Positions 2,643-47,167 of a DNA stretch of 64,000 nucleotides are shown here, in pieces. Source of the DNA: Schaalia sp. ORNL0103 (GTDB taxonomy: Bacteria; Actinomycetota; Actinomycetes; Actinomycetales; Actinomycetaceae); NCBI RefSeq assembly GCF_019429565.1, contig NZ_JAHXSA010000002.1, forward strand, positions 1-64,000, in the 5' to 3' direction. The notes beneath the pieces are model-generated. The model did no database searches. It was not told the DNA's origin and was given only the letters and a program-made list of their open reading frames with translations. The position numbers were made by a program, and so were the translations under genes. The number at the start of each line of letters is the position of its first letter. Positions within the stretch are counted from its first letter, which is position 1.

Positions 2643-2864
2643 TAGAGCCTCATTTCTATCTGTACGTGCCGATTCGCACGCCTTCGGGTGGCGCACGCCA
2701 CCACAACAATCCTACGGCCCGCTAGGCATCGCGCCGCGAAAGACCGGCATGTGGGCGCAGGTGACATGGGACGCGCCGGGGCGACCCAGGCCACACATCC
2801 CTTTTTTGCCCGGAATTGCAACGATCCTGATCAGCGTGCGAAATCGCCGTCCGTGCGGGTGCGC

Positions 2865-4424
2865 TCAGGCGGCGGGCAATGTCACGTCGATGACGGTCCC
2901 CTTCTCGGAGTCGACCAGCCGCACGGACCCACCCATCGCGCGGGCAAGCGACTCGACGATCGACATTCCCAGGCCCGAGGAGCCGCGGCCGTCGCGCGTG
3001 CGCGAGGAGTCGCCACGCACGAAACGGTCGAACACGCGGTCGCGGATCTCGGCCGGGATACCGGGACCGTCGTCCGCGACGCGCAGGGTCACCATCGACG
3101 AGGCCGGGGCACCCTTGTCGGTTTCCGCCCCCTGGGTGGCGCGGGTCAGGGAGACGGTCACGCGGGTGCCGGCGGGCGTGTGCACGCGGGCGTTCGCGAG
3201 GAGGTTCGTGAGGATCTGGCGCAGTGCAGCCTCGTCGCCGAGGACTTGCACGTCGGCTGCCTCGCCGAGCTCCCACGCATGGTCGGGAGCGACCACGTGG
3301 GCATCTGACAGGGCGTCCAGTATTAGCGGAATAACGTCGACATTCTCCCGTTTGAGGGAGCGATCTCCGTCCAGGCGCGCCAGCGTCAGCATCTCCTCCA
3401 CGAGGGATGCCATCCGCGCCCCCTCCGAGGAAATGCGCTCGAGCGCCTGGGTCCGGAACGCCTCGTCAATGTCGCGTCGCGCGAGCTGCGCGTAGCCCTG
3501 CACGGAGGCCAGCGGCGTGCGCAACTCGTGCGAGGCATCGGCGACGAACTGGCGCAGCTTCGCCTCGCTGCGGGCGCGGCGCTCCATGCCGTCTTCGACC
3601 GCGTCGATCATCGAGTTCAGGGCCCCCGCGACGTCCGCGACCTCTACGGGGCCGGAGGTGGCCTCCTCGCCGACGCGGGTCAGCTCCTCGGCGTCGTCGG
3701 CCAGGTCGCGGCTCGCGATGTCAGCGGCTGCCGCGCGCACGACACCGAGGGGACGCAGCTCGCGGCGCACCCATGCTCGGCCGGCGAAACCCGCCGCGAT
3801 AGCGACAACAAGGGACAGGCCGACCTCGACCGCGACAAGCATCAGGACCACGTCATCGACTCTGTCCATCTGCACGCCGACGAGGACCGTCTTGCCATCG
3901 ACGACCTGGGAGGTCGCGCGGAACGTGCCTAAACCTTTGAGTCGCACGGTATGCGGGGCACCATCCGTGGGCACCGCTGCCAGGATCGCCAGTGCAGGCT
4001 CATTCAAGTAGGTCACCGAGAAGTTCGAGACGACCGCGCCTGCAGCCTGCCCATCCTCGCTCACATACTGGAGTGTGCCCTCGGCGATGCCGGAACCGCC
4101 AAACCCCGGCCCCTTGGGACCGCCGGGGACAACAGGCCCACCGGGACGAGGCACCCGCCCGCCCGACTGCGGGACCGCGCGGGCGCCCTCGTCGGAATCG
4201 TCGTCGGAGTCGTCGTCCGCGTCCACCTCATCGTCCGGCGCATCCTCGACATCCAGATGCTCACCCGCACGTTGGGAGAGACGGTGCAGCTCGGAGTCCA
4301 TGTTGCCGAGCATCCAGGAGCGCATCACCAGGGTGGACGCTGCGACCATGACGATGAGCGCGAGGGCGACGCACGCGGCCAGCGCGCGCGAGAGGCGCCC
4401 GGCGAGGGAACGCCGCCGCGTCAC
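2865..4424 (-). CDS. Sensor histidine kinase of a two-component system
   Basis: A 519-residue membrane kinase with a GTG start that overlaps the response regulator stop as GTGA. A first membrane helix lies at about residues 10-35. An acidic Asp/Glu-rich then Gly/Pro-rich extracytoplasmic region follows, with a second helix near 190-220 and then a HAMP linker. The H-box is FVADASHELRTPLASVQGY, the N-box is ILTNLLANARVHTP, and the glycine boxes are VADDGPGIP and GSSGLGMSIV, so all catalytic elements are present. It should autophosphorylate and pass phosphate to the adjacent OmpR-type regulator. The architecture resembles the actinobacterial TcrY/TrcS/CseC class, but the signal sensed cannot be told. 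The acidic sensor segment could bind cations, which is speculation. Confidence 0.93.
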   Translation of the reverse strand: MTRRRSLAGRLSRALAACVALALIVMVAASTLVMRSWMLGNMDSELHRLSQRAGEHLDVEDAPDDEVDADDDSDDDSDEGARAVPQSGGRVPRPGGPVVPGGPKGPGFGGSGIAEGTLQYVSEDGQAAGAVVSNFSVTYLNEPALAILAAVPTDGAPHTVRLKGLGTFRATSQVVDGKTVLVGVQMDRVDDVVLMLVAVEVGLSLVVAIAAGFAGRAWVRRELRPLGVVRAAAADIASRDLADDAEELTRVGEEATSGPVEVADVAGALNSMIDAVEDGMERRARSEAKLRQFVADASHELRTPLASVQGYAQLARRDIDEAFRTQALERISSEGARMASLVEEMLTLARLDGDRSLKRENVDVIPLILDALSDAHVVAPDHAWELGEAADVQVLGDEAALRQILTNLLANARVHTPAGTRVTVSLTRATQGAETDKGAPASSMVTLRVADDGPGIPAEIRDRVFDRFVRGDSSRTRDGRGSSGLGMSIVESLARAMGGSVRLVDSEKGTVIDVTLPAA

Positions 4425-35568: not shown

Positions 35569-35683
35569 GAAATTTCGCACGTAATTCACTTTCTTGACAA
35601 TTCAACAACCGCCACAAACGTTGCAATACCAATGACTGGATTTCAATGTTTGAAAGATGTGCGAGGGAATTACGTGCGAGATT
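35569..35683 (+). repeat. 115-bp MITE-like element, copy 1
   Basis: The left end AAATTTCGCACGTAATTC and the right end GAATTACGTGCGAGATT are inverted repeats. The interior holds AACGTTGCAATACCAATGA, shared with the other copies. No ORF. No clear target duplication. Confidence 0.8.
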
Positions 35684-35773
35684 GTTGGGAAACTACGACA
35701 CAAATGCCGACGTCAACACAGCGAGGCCGCGACCGGAAACCCGGCCACGGCCTCGTCGAGACTGTCGAACGAA

Positions 35774-36298
35774 TCAGATGAGGAAGGGCAGCTTCTTGAC
35801 GAGCCCCAGGCCCTTCCACCACGAGCCCAGGCCGAGCGTGTCACCCGCACTGGTCAGCGGAATCAGGATGAGAACGAGAGCGTAGACCAGGTGCTCGTTG
35901 ACGACCGGATTGAGGGAACCCCACACCCACGGGGCGACCGCCGCATACATGAAGCCCAGCATGACGACACCCGCGACAGCCGCGAGGCGCGTGCCGATCC
36001 CCAGCAGGAATGCCAGGCCGATACCCAGCAGGCCGAGCATGAACAGCCAATCCATGGCGGGCATGGCCAGCGACTCGAAGAAGGAGGCCAGGGGCTTGCC
36101 GGTCGTCGCGCCCGTCAGGTAGCTCTGCGCTGGCGTGCCGCCGTTGATCCACGCGCGCGACGGGCCCGTCGAGTAGTGCAGGCCGAACGTCTTATCCAGG
36201 AACGACCACAGGAAAATGAAGCCGACCGCGATGCGCAGCAGGGCCAGGACGAAGCGCGCGGGCTTGGAGGTGACGACGGCTGATGCGGGACGAGGCAT
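35774..36298 (-). CDS. DoxX-family membrane protein
   Basis: 174 residues with four membrane helices: LLRIAVGFIFLWSFLDKTFG, WLFMLGLLGIGLAFLLGIG, LAAVAGVVMLGFMYAAVAP and LVYALVLILIPLTSAG. DoxX-family proteins are small quinone-linked or redox-stress membrane proteins, and many are uncharacterised. ATG 36298 is preceded by AAAGGA at good spacing. The gene is isolated between two repeat-bearing non-coding stretches, with a dispersed motif copy just beyond its stop. Confidence 0.88.
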   Translation of the reverse strand: MPRPASAVVTSKPARFVLALLRIAVGFIFLWSFLDKTFGLHYSTGPSRAWINGGTPAQSYLTGATTGKPLASFFESLAMPAMDWLFMLGLLGIGLAFLLGIGTRLAAVAGVVMLGFMYAAVAPWVWGSLNPVVNEHLVYALVLILIPLTSAGDTLGLGSWWKGLGLVKKLPFLI

Positions 36299-36485
36299 GT
36301 CAGTCCTTTCGGGACGGAACTGCAGGTGAGCGTTGTGAGGGCGTCGACAGCGTGCCGCCCTTCTCCCATTATCCACTGGCCAAACCCCGCAACGCTAGGG
36401 GCGGTGCACTGTGCGAGCCCAACCGGAAGATTGCACGAGGTTGAAGAGACCTTCGAGCAAACAACTGCGCCATGCCGGGCCCATT

Positions 36486-36642
36486 CCGCGAAAAAAATCG
36501 CCCAGCACGGCCCCTTCAGAGGCCTTTCCGCGAAAAACTCGCCCAGCAAGCACAAAAACGCCGAATTTGGGGTGTTTTAAGCGCGCAGGGCGAACTTTTT
36601 CGTACTTCCGCATTGACACAGCGCGCAGGGCGAACTTTTTCG
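36486..36642. repeat. Inverted repeat array with 40-42-bp phasing
   Basis: CCGCGAAAAA(AA)(T/C)TCGCCCAGCA occurs at about 36486 and 36528. Two copies in the opposite orientation, GCGCGCAGGGCGAACTTTTT, start at 36581 and 36621. Two direct units thus face two inverted units around an AT-rich centre. Confidence 0.75.
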
Positions 36643-36710
36643 CGCCCAAATGAAACCGCCACCACGAAAACCGGGCCGCAAAGGTATCACCGGTCTCAGC
36701 CTGGCAACGC

Positions 36711-36820
36711 GTAGCACCGGATATGCAAGCGATGCACTAGATACAGGACCAATGCACCAGATAGCACAGCATTGCACTGGCAACTAAGCAGTGCAATGCC
36801 TGTCCAAGCAGTGCAATGCC
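36711..36820. repeat. 20-bp-phased repeat array with orientation switch
   Basis: Four direct units start at 36711, 36731, 36751 and 36771 (cores GTAGCACCGG, GATGCACTAG, AATGCACCAG, ATTGCACTGG). Two inverted identical 15-mers, AAGCAGTGCAATGCC, lie at 36786 and 36806. All spacing is exactly 20 bp within each orientation. Confidence 0.8.
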
Positions 36821-36863
36821 CCTGAGGGACAAGCGCCATCGCGGAGACGAGGACCCATCCCAT

Positions 36864-36977
36864 AATTCCGCATGCAATTCCAACTCAGCCCAACCCCGCA
36901 CCAATGTAGATTCCGCAGAATTCCAACGATCAGATTTCAAACCATGAAACACATTCAAGGGAATTGCATGCGAAATT
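36864..36977 (+). repeat. MITE-like element, copy 2 (diverged)
   Basis: Ends AATTCCGCATGCAATTCC and GGAATTGCATGCGAAATT are inverted. The interior AATTCCAACGATCAGATTTC aligns with the other copies. The ACGT in the ends of the other copies is ATGC here on both sides, a compensated change. Confidence 0.72.
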
Positions 36978-37002
36978 GCTGGGCGACAGGAACAGCTCCC
37001 CC

Positions 37003-37117
37003 GAAATCTCGCACGTAATTCGATTGGACGAAGTTTCAACAAAGTCTGAAAACGTTGCAATTCCAACGATCGGAATTCAGAATTTGAAAGAGTCGCAGGG
37101 GAATTACGTGCGAAATT
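37003..37117 (+). repeat. 115-bp MITE-like element, copy 3
   Basis: Left end GAAATCTCGCACGTAATTC, right end GAATTACGTGCGAAATT, interior AACGTTGCAATTCCAACGAT. Begins 26 bp after copy 2 in the same orientation. Confidence 0.82.
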
Positions 37118-44446: not shown

Positions 44447-45633
44447 CACGCAACATCAGCACGGCGCGCCTGCTCGGCGTCACGGCCTCGACCCTGGCGC
44501 TCGCCACGGGAGCCACCGCGCTGCCGACCGGCCCCGCGCACGCCGCCGACCCGATCACGGCAGCTGACCAGCCGTATTTTGCCTACTACTACCTGAGCGA
44601 AGCCCGCAACATGGGCTTGAGGGGTAAAGGGGTCACGATCGCGCTCATCGACGGCGAGGTCGACACGACAGCCCCCGAGCTGGCGAAAACGAATATCACC
44701 GACAAGACTCCCTGCACCGTCACCTCCAGCACGCAGAGCAAGACGCACGGCACCGCGATGGCCTCGATCATTGCCTCGGATGCCTACGGCGTTGCCCCCG
44801 ACGCGACGATCCTGTCGTATCGCATGTCGTTTACCACCCAGGGTGACACGTCCGGGGAGGACTGCAACGACGACTCCGTTGTTGGCGTCACCAAGGACAC
44901 TTACGCCTCCCTCATGAACCACGCCATGAACGACGGGGCGACGATCATCAACATGTCCGTATCCAGCGACGAAAGCCTAGACGCCCTGAAGTGGGCGGTG
45001 GCCCGCTCCATCTCCCAGGGCGTCGTTGTCATTGCCGCAGCCGGTAACACAGGCAGGTACTCCGACCAATTTGCACTGTCCTGGTGGTCGGGCGTCGCCG
45101 GCGTCGGAGCGATCGACACCCAAGGAAAGGTGGTCGATTCTTCTTCCAGCGGCAAAGGCCTCGTATCGGCGGCCGTGGGCACCGCGACCGTGCGCGACTA
45201 TTCGACGGGAGCAAACACGACGGTGACGGGCACCTCGGTGTCCACTGCGCTGGTCTCGGGCTTCGTGGCTCTGGCCCACGAGAAGTGGCCCGAGGCGACC
45301 CCGAACCAGCTGCTCCAGCTCCTCGTCCACACCGGGACGAACCCTAATCATGCGTGGAACGATCGCACGGGCTACGGCCCCGCTGACCCCGGCGCCATGG
45401 TCAATACGGACCCCAGCCAGTACCCGGACGAGAACCCCCTGATGACTAAACGCCCGGATGTAGAACCCACGCCCGAGGAGATCCAGCAGTACGTGGACGG
45501 GGTCGTCTCCCCCCGTGAGATCGCCTACGACAACTCCTACACGTACCGCGGCTTCGACGAGGGCGTGGTCGGCGACCATCTTAACCACTACCCCACCCAC
45601 CTGGGGACCAGCCCGCGCTACCACGGCAAGTAA
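44440..45633 (+). CDS. Mycosin-like secreted subtilase
   Basis: 397 residues from ATG 44440; an ATG five codons earlier lacks any RBS. The signal peptide ends near AHAAD (residue 37). The S8 peptidase triad is intact: Asp71 in ALIDGEVD, His103 in KTHGTAMAS and Ser266 in GTSVSTALVSG, with oxyanion Asn203 in AAAGNTG. Mycosins are wall-side proteases of type VII secretion systems. This one lacks the usual C-terminal membrane anchor, ending instead in a hydrophilic tail (VEPTPEEIQQYVDG ... PRYHGK). It is coupled to the two upstream ESX-like genes. No EccB/C/D core is in the window. Confidence 0.88.
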   Translation: MVTRNISTARLLGVTASTLALATGATALPTGPAHAADPITAADQPYFAYYYLSEARNMGLRGKGVTIALIDGEVDTTAPELAKTNITDKTPCTVTSSTQSKTHGTAMASIIASDAYGVAPDATILSYRMSFTTQGDTSGEDCNDDSVVGVTKDTYASLMNHAMNDGATIINMSVSSDESLDALKWAVARSISQGVVVIAAAGNTGRYSDQFALSWWSGVAGVGAIDTQGKVVDSSSSGKGLVSAAVGTATVRDYSTGANTTVTGTSVSTALVSGFVALAHEKWPEATPNQLLQLLVHTGTNPNHAWNDRTGYGPADPGAMVNTDPSQYPDENPLMTKRPDVEPTPEEIQQYVDGVVSPREIAYDNSYTYRGFDEGVVGDHLNHYPTHLGTSPRYHGK

Positions 45634-45811: not shown

Positions 45812-46108
45812 CAGGCCCTGCGGTCCCTCCGGTGTCCTCCACGCCGGTGGGGCCTTCGCGGCTGATGTTGCTCGGTGCGTTGCCCTGATGCCCAGCTATG
45901 GCTGTCAACCAGCAATTCCGCACGTAATTCCTCGATGACTCATTCAAACTTCGAATTTGCGTCGTTGGAATTGCAACGTTTTTGAGGCACCTCGAAAAAT
46001 GACCACGATAAATTACGTGCGAAATTTATCTGGCGGTGGTGTCGGTGCCGCCCACGAGTGCCGCAGTCAGGCCCTGCGGTCCCTCCGGCGCCCTCCATGC
46101 CGGCGGTG
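45812..46108. repeat. Duplicated GC-rich segment flanking MITE copy 4
   Basis: CAGGCCCTGCGGTCCCTCCG begins both copies (45812-45850 and 46069-46108), and similarity continues through CCTCCA(C/T)GCCGG. The two lie in direct orientation, one on each side of the MITE-like element. Confidence 0.8.
45913..46027 (-). repeat. 115-bp MITE-like element, copy 4 (inverted)
   Basis: Plus-strand ends are CAATTCCGCACGTAATTCC and AATTACGTGCGAAATTT. The reverse complement contains AACGTTGCAATTCCAACGA, aligning with copies 1 and 3 over the whole length. Confidence 0.82.
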
Positions 46109-46112
46109 GGGG

Positions 46113-46178
46113 TTTTGCACCATTAGGAGCTACCCTTCGGCGTGTCGCCGGCGTGTCGCGCCCCTCATGGTGCAAATT
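46113..46178. repeat. Inverted repeat TTTGCACCAT / ATGGTGCAAA
   Basis: TTTTGCACCAT (46113-46123) and ATGGTGCAAATT (46167-46178) are inverted around about 43 bp containing a CGTGTCGCCGGCGTGTCG direct repeat. Too far apart for a simple terminator. Confidence 0.55.
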
Positions 46179-46222
46179 CCCCCGTCTGGTGGCGGCGAGG
46201 TCACAGTTCGGGGCGGTAAGGC

Positions 46223-46297
46223 GCCCAAATCGCAGACCACCTCGGTGAAAAACATTGAAACTAGGGTGTTGTGGCTGAAGTGGTCTGCGTTTTGGGC
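46223..46297. repeat. 75-bp inverted-repeat element
   Basis: GCCCAAATCGCAGACCACCT (46223-46242) is nearly the inverse of AGTGGTCTGCGTTTTGGGC (46279-46297). It resembles a second kind of small palindromic element, different in sequence from the 115-bp family. Confidence 0.6.
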
Positions 46298-46320
46298 ACA
46301 ACGGTGCCTGACCTGGTGTG

Positions 46321-46500
46321 TTGGTCGCACGCAAACCGCTGAATATGCGCGTCAACCCCTTAATACGCACGTAAACCTCTAGATGTGCGCGTGGGTGGCG
46401 CTGCCCACGCGCATATCATCGGGTTCACGTGCGAGGTGTCGCACCCACGCACATGTCATCGGGCCCACGTGCGCATTAGCGGGCCCACGTCCATGGCGAC
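46321..46500. repeat. Nine-unit 20-bp-phased array with orientation switch
   Basis: Units start every 20 bp. Four (46321-46400) read like GAATATGCGCGTCAACCCCT. Five (46401-46500) are the inverse, like GGGTTCACGTGCGAGGTGTC. The shared core is CACGYGCGCAT or its complement. At the switch point, ATGTGCGCGTGGG faces CCCACGCGCATAT, making a perfect-looking stem. No spacers, no ORF. Confidence 0.85.
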
Positions 46501-46546
46501 AAGCACAGGCAGCTAGCAGGCCTCGGCACACGGAACGCATCAGCAC

Positions 46547-46588
46547 ATACTCGAAGGGGCCGGCCATAAGGCCGACCCCTTCGAGTAT
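46547..46588. repeat. 19-bp-stem hairpin
   Basis: ATACTCGAAGGGGCCGGCC (46547-46565) is almost perfectly inverted at 46570-46588 with an ATAA loop; one position mismatches. No T run on either side, so a structural element rather than an obvious intrinsic terminator. Confidence 0.7.
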
Positions 46589-46732
46589 CCCATCAACACA
46601 GTGCAAGTCTTCCGATGCGCTCCCTTTCTTGGCTCACCCTTTGTGGGTGTCGCCCTTGGCTTGATGACTATTAATGTACGGACCCCGCCTGTGGGAACCA
46701 TTGAACAAACCTGGCAATTTCCTGAGAATTTT

Positions 46733-47167
46733 TCACCGCTCCGGTCCGGCGCGCGCCCGGGCGCTCACATTCGTTGAAATACCAGCGATTCTGACTGGCT
46801 GCGTGAGGACCACCAGGCAGTCGAGATCGCGCACCTCGCAGGACTGGACGCCCACGCCATTCGCCACAGCGACGGCGGAGGCCGCCCCGCATGGCCGCTC
46901 CCCCACGTCCTCCCAGCCAGCCGTCGCTGACTGCTCTGCCCCCGCCAGGGCCGCCAGGTCGGCGACGGCCTGCAGGCGCACCCGCTCACGGTGAGCAACG
47001 CCAACCCCGCCAAGGACAACCGCAAGCACGAGGGCCAAGACAATGAGCCCCACGGAATTGATGGTCCCGGATCCTTCCTCGCCGCAACGGTCGCCGGTAC
47101 ACCACCTATCCGCGACAGCCCCGCGTCCATGCACAGCTGCACGCGGGGCTGTCGGTTCAAGCGTCAC
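46733..47167 (-). CDS. TadE/TadG-like pseudopilin-neighbourhood protein
   Basis: 144 residues from a GTG overlapping the upstream tadE-like stop (GTGA). After an N-terminal segment of about 30 residues comes the typical GSGTINSVGLIVLALVLAVVL membrane helix with HRERVRLQAVADLAALAGAEQ. This is the hallmark of the 'helicase/secretion neighbourhood TadE-like' family (Rv3654c-like). Cysteines in RPCGAAS, QSCEV and LDCLVV may be bonded outside. It is the last gene of the Tad operon, probably a minor pilin or assembly component. Confidence 0.8.
   Translation of the reverse strand: MTLEPTAPRAAVHGRGAVADRWCTGDRCGEEGSGTINSVGLIVLALVLAVVLGGVGVAHRERVRLQAVADLAALAGAEQSATAGWEDVGERPCGAASAVAVANGVGVQSCEVRDLDCLVVLTQPVRIAGISTNVSARARAGPER

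What the first reader, a model, noticed from the sequence alone, without database searches (positions are those of the whole stretch)
46321..46500. Nine 20-bp repeats that flip orientation in the middle
Units fall exactly every 20 bp. Units 1-4 (46321-46400) read like GAATATGCGCGTCAACCCCT, and units 5-9 (46401-46500) read as their inverse, like GGGTTCACGTGCGAGGTGTC, with core CACGYGCGCAT. The switch point forms a long perfect stem. Twenty base pairs is about two helical turns, so all sites would face one side of the DNA. There are no spacers, so this is not a CRISPR. It could be an operator array for a cooperative DNA-binding protein, a replication or partition site, or the template of a long self-pairing RNA.
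Basis: partly seen in the sequence, partly recalled or inferred. Interest (0 to 1): 0.85.

Follow-up and report, generated by a model that had tools for sequence, protein, structure and literature searches.

The report
Dispersed flip repeat linked to nuclease
The head-to-head 20-bp array is one copy of a dispersed repeat family that, in sister species, lies on both sides of a gene for a predicted DNA-cutting enzyme; many related enzymes likewise sit between copies of their own repeat, which suggests a REP/RAYT-like partnership built on an unrelated enzyme.

Summary
The array is real: nine 20-bp units in strict register, flipping at 46400. It is one copy of a dispersed, intergenic family in 10 of 35 genomes of its genus (Schaalia odontolytica group), inside a ~400-bp composite (46108-46509) with two hairpin modules. 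Order is inverted-then-direct; orthologs differ by whole units. Arms do not co-vary, against a hairpin RNA. In four sister species such arrays (in two more, a diverged form) lie on both sides of a gene for a predicted Vsr/DUF559-like (PD-(D/E)XK) nuclease. The gene belongs to a paralog family: 34 of 38 members examined in carriers, 12 of 24 in non-carrier congeners and 14 of 20 outside the genus have matching repeats on both flanks, against 0 of 33 window genes; flank-repeat family follows nuclease phylogeny (34 labelled genes, 6 changes, the minimum). Modules A, B and D beside the array match repeats flanking other paralogs. Best reading: a solo copy of the recognition repeat of a Vsr-like nuclease, REP/RAYT-like in logic but without the RAYT enzyme (0 of 35 genomes). 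Binding, cutting and spreading are inferred. The window's genome lacks the cognate nuclease, so this copy is probably a relic.

The parts
46320..46399 (-). left arm of the array: four 20-bp units in inverse orientation (the outermost weak)
46400..46499 (+). right arm: five 20-bp units; the ortholog in G012 has three (exactly 40 bp less)
46108..46509 (+). composite dispersed element A+B+array; the second copy in the same genome (G000:C1:1247141) is 94% identical over 403 bp and the match covers just this stretch
46108..46182 (+). module A: hairpin with variable stem and conserved loop CGGCGTGTCGCCGGCGTGTCG; the same repeat flanks nuclease clade A
46223..46297 (+). module B: hairpin with variable stem (here GCAGACCACCTC / GAAGTGGTCTGC); the same repeat flanks nuclease clade B
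45914..46026 (+). module D: ~113-bp inverted-repeat element (CGCACGTAATT / AATTACGTGCG); the same repeat flanks one nuclease gene (L208)
35571..35683 (+). further module D copy
36864..36977 (+). further module D copy with the stem changed on both sides (CATGCAATT / AATTGCATG)
37005..37117 (+). further module D copy
36491..36645 (.). small flip array of the ~41-bp-period family (GCGAAAAA-type units); such units lie on one side of nuclease genes L204 (many) and L185 (one); end coordinate approximate
46547..46588 (.). terminator-like stem beside the conserved sequence before the downstream gene; a boundary, not part of the element

Best explanation
The array is a solo (gene-less) copy of the cognate repeat of one lineage of predicted Vsr/DUF559-like PD-(D/E)XK nucleases. 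SHOWN: arrays of this family lie on both sides of one nuclease lineage in sister species and are scattered between genes elsewhere; many other nuclease genes have other repeat families on both sides; repeat family follows nuclease phylogeny; modules A, B and D beside the array match repeats flanking other lineages. INFERRED: the N-terminal part (weakly AbiEi-like in one paralog tested) reads the ~20-bp units, which is why they keep a 20-bp register and one head-to-head order; the C-terminal domain cuts at or near the repeat or its target; copies spread in trans when breaks are repaired, or by an unknown exchange, and come to rest between genes. Unit number then changes by slippage or unequal recombination in whole units. 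The window's genome has no cognate nuclease, so its copies are probably relics kept by decay and gene conversion.
For: Dispersed family: 13 matches at 10 places in the own genome. Strict 20-bp register. Of 94 arrays in fetched loci (one place counted twice), 86 flip the same way, 7 have one orientation, 1 is mixed, none reversed, 0 overlap predicted genes. Direct copies of the array flank the nuclease gene in G180, G023, G181 and G183. Left/right flank repeats: 38 of 44 genes in the first set, a 39th on a longer locus (L154 for L112), v 0 of 33 window genes; with 500-bp flanks 31 of 39 and 9 of 12 v 1 of 52 and 1 of 32 other genes in the same loci. Tree: F 8/8, X 7/7, C 6/6, A 5/5 and B 3/3 each one clade (B with modest support 85/84); G split by two unlabelled genes; 6 changes among 34 labelled genes, the minimum for 7 families. 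Outside the genus 14 of 20, with dispersed copies in both genomes tested (15 and 7 places). Residues E218, D249, E260, D262, K266 invariant in 18 of 18 aligned members. C-lineage dN/dS 0.10-0.27 in the 10 of 15 pairs where it could be computed.
Against: No binding, cutting or movement was observed. Four of ten carriers, the window's genome among them, lack the close nuclease; G185 has it but only 3 pattern hits. In 18 further non-carrier congener genes only 7 have flank repeats, so the layout is not universal: 34 of 38 in carriers, 12 of 24 in non-carriers. Only 26 of 38 flank repeats have an exact stem longer than 95% of their shuffles; of the C-family ones L103, L193 and L200 do not. The C label of the two diverged genes (L200, L210) was read by eye: their repeats match only 8 and 4 of the 94 arrays, against 80 for L103, and did not match the window array. 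All family labels were assigned by eye. No target-site duplication or exact insertion junction was found. Pfam support is weak: both C-lineage proteins are below every cut-off; of eight others four pass DUF559 and one RAP.
Confidence: 0.75

Rival explanations
1. The repeats are operators: an AbiEi-like protein binds the 20-bp units to regulate its own gene, and dispersed copies are by-products or decoys.
For: AbiEi antitoxins bind paired 23-bp inverted repeats (PMC7319586, passages seen); one paralog (L190) has a weak AbiEi_4 hit and weak AbiEi hits in PADLOC.
Against: Repeats lie on both sides of the gene, and solo arrays lie mostly between convergent or tandem genes (27 convergent, 40 tandem, 8 divergent of 75 with both neighbours; crude gene calls). 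The two C-lineage proteins scanned show no AbiEi hit.
Confidence: 0.2
2. They are miniature inverted-repeat elements moved by an ordinary insertion-sequence transposase; nuclease genes are passengers caught between two copies.
For: Intergenic and dispersed; modules A, B and D look like inverted-repeat miniature elements; about half of the non-carrier congener nuclease genes have no flank pair.
Against: Repeat family follows nuclease phylogeny and passengers would not; 14 of 20 nuclease loci outside the genus repeat the layout, mostly with other sequences; no target-site duplication seen at the one locus compared.
Confidence: 0.12
3. Selection keeps the array as a structured RNA or DNA hairpin, such as a bidirectional terminator.
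For: The centre is palindromic; the site lies between convergent genes; modules A and B show more double-change cells than shuffles.
Against: The arms show no covariation; at the L021 locus terminator-like stems already end both genes in species without the array (by eye); no Rfam match covers the array at E up to 1.
Confidence: 0.07
4. Plain minisatellite junk spread by recombination, without an enzyme partner.
For: Whole-unit length changes between orthologs; close similarity of two copies in a genome without the nuclease.
Against: Association with nuclease genes far above controls and congruent with phylogeny.
Confidence: 0.05

Closest known systems
REP/REPIN elements and RAYT transposases (PMC2817692, PMC3116915; abstracts and passages seen)
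   Same: Cognate repeats flank one nuclease gene and are dispersed between genes; repeat and enzyme diversify together; in G180 and G183, where I read all or most members, the lineages differ from one another
   Different: RAYTs are Y1 tyrosine transposases flanked by REPs in inverted orientation; here Y1_Tnp is found in 0 of 35 genomes, the enzyme is a predicted Vsr/DUF559-like nuclease, and the best flank pair is direct in 36 of 38, though only 8 of 14 outside the genus
BOX elements of pneumococcus (PMC3049150, passages seen)
   Same: Composite intergenic element with a tandem part that varies in copy number between strains
   Different: No polarity flip is mentioned in the passages seen; a proposed link is to ISSpn2, not to a nuclease flanked by the repeats
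AbiEi antitoxins binding 23-bp inverted repeats (PMC7319586, passages seen)
   Same: Protein binding to several inverted ~20-bp sites beside its own gene
   Different: Here the sites are arrays on both sides and genome-wide, the protein ends in a nuclease-like domain, and AbiEi similarity is weak
REase_MTES_1575 / DUF559 Vsr-fold nucleases (PMC3710099, passages seen)
   Same: Same predicted C-terminal domain by (mostly sub-threshold) Pfam similarity
   Different: In the passages seen the domain is fused to HEPN, transglutaminase and wHTH domains; no repeats are mentioned there

Membership tests
REP/RAYT | Y1 tyrosine transposase (RAYT) in the genome | tested here: not met
   PF01797 in 0 of 35 genus genomes; the control rings in 5 of 14 named genomes
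[quoted passage not shown]
   best flank pair direct in 36 of 38, 5 of 7 further congener genes, 8 of 14 outside the genus; orientation is blurred where a repeat is itself a foldback
REP/RAYT | dispersed intergenic copies of the repeat that flanks the enzyme gene | tested here: met
   two cases outside the genus
REP/RAYT | GT(A/G)G head tag | not tested
   not searched for
DUF559 / MTES_1575 nuclease (PD-(D/E)XK) | curated profile cut-off reached | tested here: inconclusive
   DUF559 passed by 4 of 8 proteins; neither of the 2 C-lineage proteins passes any cut-off; MTES_1575 passed by none of the 10
DUF559 / MTES_1575 nuclease (PD-(D/E)XK) | conserved candidate active-site residues | tested here: met
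   E218, D249, E260, D262, K266 invariant in 18 of 18; their assignment to the active site is from recall of the superfamily motif
DUF559 / MTES_1575 nuclease (PD-(D/E)XK) | nuclease activity | not testable with these tools
   needs purified protein
CRISPR | direct repeats separated by unique spacers | tested here: not met
   units abut and invert
Iteron or partition site | one or few sites per replicon | tested here: not met
   many dispersed copies per genome
BOX element | boxA/boxB/boxC sequences | not tested
   no sequence comparison made
MITE of an insertion sequence | target-site duplication and matching autonomous element | tested here: inconclusive
   none seen at one locus compared; insertion-sequence ends not surveyed

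The most novel reading that the evidence does not exclude
Actinomycetales carry an independent, widespread counterpart of REP/RAYT: a diversified family of Vsr-like nucleases, many of them kept at a fixed place between copies of their own phased repeat, which copy that repeat into intergenic space in trans. The mosaics of intergenic repeats in these genomes are the combined footprint of several such nuclease-repeat lineages.
Probability: 0.55. Interest if true: 0.92.

Novelty: new variant of a known kind. Interest (0 to 1): 0.85.

Why it matters
It ties a class of unexplained intergenic repeats to a specific, testable enzyme family of unknown function, and suggests that nuclease-repeat partnerships like REP/RAYT arose more than once with unrelated enzymes. 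It offers a natural set of matched enzymes and recognition arrays whose sequences have diverged together, and an explanation for length-variable repeat loci in human oral bacteria of the Schaalia odontolytica group.

Tried and rejected
RAYT/Y1 as the mobiliser: 0 of 35 genomes. Phage or plasmid origin: no DNA match for the intergenic region, no exact pattern in viral contigs, no nuclease relative confirmed in viral contigs or phages, one weak plasmid-collection hit, on an 11.85-Mb record. Rfam: no match over the array. Long hairpin: not supported. A first unit matrix drifted to codon periodicity and was restricted to the neighbourhood of hits. A de novo flip-array scan was killed by the sandbox and rerun with stricter settings. 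A clean empty site at the window locus was not obtained: G023, G183 and G185 lack the element there, but their left neighbours differ. Array number v nuclease presence is suggestive only (pattern hits 43, 40, 35, 43, 32, 3 with; 19, 8, 22, 27 without): draft assemblies and shared ancestry confound it. No significant solved-structure relative (best E 0.19). Structure prediction was not run: the tool admits only window proteins or those of certain loci, and the loci of that kind already held (L081-L092) contain no nuclease match.

It tested 30 loci (12 repeat genes of the first set, 18 are new, all from non-carriers); 7 of the 18 new genes have flank repeats. It also showed that only 26 of 38 flank repeats have a clear exact stem.

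Not-in-print claim: the paper searches were (open-access PMC only; all ten used). Only the listed papers were seen (for example 15 of 5,264, 12 of 111); none of those listed joins DUF559/MTES_1575 nucleases with flanking repeats. Subscription papers and unlisted papers were not seen.

Full report
Observation. The array is as described. Units of 20 bp run from 46320 to 46499 and change orientation at 46400. The chain of eight matrix-scored units has no counterpart in 100 shuffles (longest chain 1; partly circular, because these units helped train the matrix). The centre is a good but not perfect stem. The array lies between convergent genes: an S8-type protease-like ORF ending at 45633 and a minus-strand ORF ending at 46733 (the names are my reading of the translations).

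It is a dispersed family. A 211-bp query found 13 matches at 10 places in the own genome and between 6 and 24 matches in each of five congeners; 10 of 38 genomes had any match. A two-unit pattern with up to 3 mismatches found 10 of 35 genus genomes and 2 of 178 other family genomes with a single hit each; the reversed control gave one hit. Exact matches over the genome collection fell in 12 stretches, in records titled Actinomyces sp. HPA0247, A. bouchesdurhonensis, Schaalia odontolytica, Xylanimonas cellulosilytica and Sanguibacter keddieii; I take the last two to be mislabelled, the Sanguibacter one because its contig length equals that of a congener. None were in viral contigs.

Anatomy. 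Over 63 copies a unit matrix found 446 units; 299 of 314 same-strand neighbours within 70 bp are exactly 20 bp apart. Of 94 arrays in fetched loci (one place counted twice), 86 run inverse-then-direct, 7 are one-sided, 1 is mixed, none run the other way, and none overlaps a predicted gene; among 75 with both neighbours 27 are convergent, 40 tandem, 8 divergent (simple codon-model genes). Units alternate ACGTGCG and ACGCGCA, and each position from the centre has its own consensus (44 clean arrays). At the orthologous site G012 has two units fewer, and G181 and G180 differ by four. The window copy and one paralog are 94% alike over 403 bp, window 46108-46509, which marks out a composite of hairpin A, hairpin B and the array; a profile recovers full-length and partial copies.

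Not a maintained hairpin. In modules A and B double-change cells exceed shuffles (21 v mean 3.8, maximum 9; 48 v 18.1, maximum 30), though the number of distinct double-changed pair types does not (4 v 2.3, maximum 5; 9 v 7.6, maximum 11), and relatedness can inflate cell counts. In the array's arms even the cells do not (3+3 units: 38 v 56.6; the central 1+1 units: 22 v 19.5, maximum 29).

Insertion. Next to an HU-like gene (read by eye), six congeners have 18-135 bp between the matched flanks, while G000, G022, G180 and G181 have 654-754 bp of mosaic there; terminator-like stems stand on either side. G180 and G181 have modules A and B at this place but no array. No target duplication was evident.

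The key lead. In G180 and G023 two arrays lie about 1.5 kb apart around one gene; G181 and G183 show the same direct flank copies. The protein has weak similarity to DUF559 and RAP. Its family is in 33 of 35 genus genomes, 126 matches in all; sequences at least 60% identical occur in six genomes, all array carriers (6 of 10 carriers, 0 of 25 others). Shared ancestry confounds this count. The gene stands at one syntenic place in those six. In G000, G012 and G011 both flanks persist (in G022 only the right flank was found), and in all four no nuclease match or array was found in the ~1.5 kb beside the right flank, where another gene lies (250-360 bp of the interval in G000, G012 and G011 were not read).

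The flanks of the nuclease genes. The first set was 44 genes in 43 loci, from the ten carriers (38 genes) and from G006 and G017 (6). Of these 38 have repeats on both sides; the six without are L112 (locus cut), L185, L191, L202, L204, L222. A longer locus of the L112 gene (L154) does have them. One search also read 18 further genes, all from non-carriers: 7 have flank repeats, 11 do not (one of these, L178, with a short left flank). Distinct genes in the genus: 34 of 38 in carriers, 12 of 24 in non-carriers; 62 of the 126 matches were examined. Controls: 0 of 33 window genes; with 500-bp flanks 31 of 39 and 9 of 12 nuclease genes v 1 of 52 and 1 of 32 other genes in the same loci (genes with short flanks dropped).

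Repeat families. The flank repeats sort, by eye, into families: C (this array), F (19-bp units GGATAGGTTATT), X, A, B, D, G, and others in G006 and G017. Twenty-six of 38 have an exact stem longer than 95% of their shuffles; 12 do not, among them three C-family ones whose arms pair imperfectly, and L221, whose pair reflects a duplication. A de novo scan had found flip arrays of several unrelated sequences with main periods 19/38, 20/40, 41-42 and 52, besides single cases of 44, 57 and 60. Three genes without a flank pair have such units on one side: L204 many E/E2, L191 three H2, L185 a single E2.

Phylogeny. In an IQ-TREE of 44 proteins, F 8/8, X 7/7, C 6/6, A 5/5 (each 100/98 or better) and B 3/3 (85/84) each form one clade, D is next to B, and G (4 genes) is split by two unlabelled genes. 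Thirty-four labelled genes need 6 changes, the minimum; all eight groups including the unlabelled need 8 against a shuffled mean of 29.5, as low in 0 of 200. Near-copies help any label to cluster. The two diverged C-lineage genes (L200, L210; 60-64% identical) carry arrays that I read as a C variant with a changed half-unit; they match 8 and 4 of the 94 arrays, against 80 for L103 and 0 for F and X repeats. If they are not counted as C, the other four C genes still form one clade.

Beyond the genus. The family is in 31 of 59 genomes drawn from the order, the own genome included. I read 20 of the 62 matches outside the genus, mostly the strongest; 14 have left/right repeats, 8 direct and 6 inverted as the best pair, mostly of different sequence (L231 and L237, from one genus, are alike). 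Two such repeats were traced and are dispersed: 15 places in G119 and 7 in G030, two of each flanking the gene.

The enzyme. Eighteen aligned members share invariant E218, D249, E260, D262 and K266. Pfam points to MTES_1575 (a Vsr-fold REase, PMC3710099, passages), DUF559 and RAP, mostly below cut-off; NCBIfam gives at most weak DUF559 hits. The C lineage is under purifying selection (dN/dS 0.10-0.27 in 10 of 15 pairs; synonymous sites saturated in the other five). Nuclease activity is a prediction.

Mechanism. I infer that the N-terminal part reads the units and the nuclease domain cuts; AbiEi proteins bind paired 23-bp inverted repeats (PMC7319586, passages), but the AbiEi similarity here is weak and not seen in the C lineage. 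How copies spread is unknown. The organisation resembles REP/RAYT (PMC2817692, PMC3116915; passages), but two defining features fail: no Y1 enzyme in 35 genomes, and the flank pairs are mostly direct. I therefore call it REP/RAYT-like, not REP/RAYT.

For this array. G000 lacks the C-lineage gene (its best family matches are 36-37% identical), so the window copy is most likely a relic. Its neighbours A and B belong to lineages of which G000 still has a gene (L186, L187).

Noticed in passing
window 46589-46732: Non-coding sequence (CCCATCAACACAGTGCAAGTC...) before the minus-strand gene is conserved in all 12 loci printed, carriers and non-carriers, next to a terminator-like stem; no Rfam match there. 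Possibly an unnamed RNA or leader.
   Followed up: no
window 35571-37117: Three module D copies and a small 41-bp-period flip array surround a DoxX-like gene; one D copy has its stem changed on both sides.
   Followed up: partly
L221 1941-5233: Two identical nuclease genes in tandem in G017, each with a 73-bp flank repeat.
   Followed up: no
L100, L101 about 2840-3100: Non-carriers G006 and G021 have a different 52-bp-period flip array (TTCCAAAATGCGTCTGAGT) in the intergenic place where carriers have the 20-bp array.
   Followed up: partly
L081, L088: Records titled Xylanimonas cellulosilytica 352_XCEL and Sanguibacter keddieii 250_SKED carry the array and look mislabelled; the contig length of L088 equals that of G012:C7.
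   Followed up: partly
L067 about 3100-3800: Transposase-like ORF remnant inside the intergenic mosaic of G010 at the window's orthologous site (read by eye).
   Followed up: no
window 46108-46509 and G000:C1:1247141: The two copies are closer to each other (94%) than the second is to its own ortholog in G022 (91% over the matching 535-bp stretch), which suggests gene conversion in a genome without the cognate nuclease.
   Followed up: no
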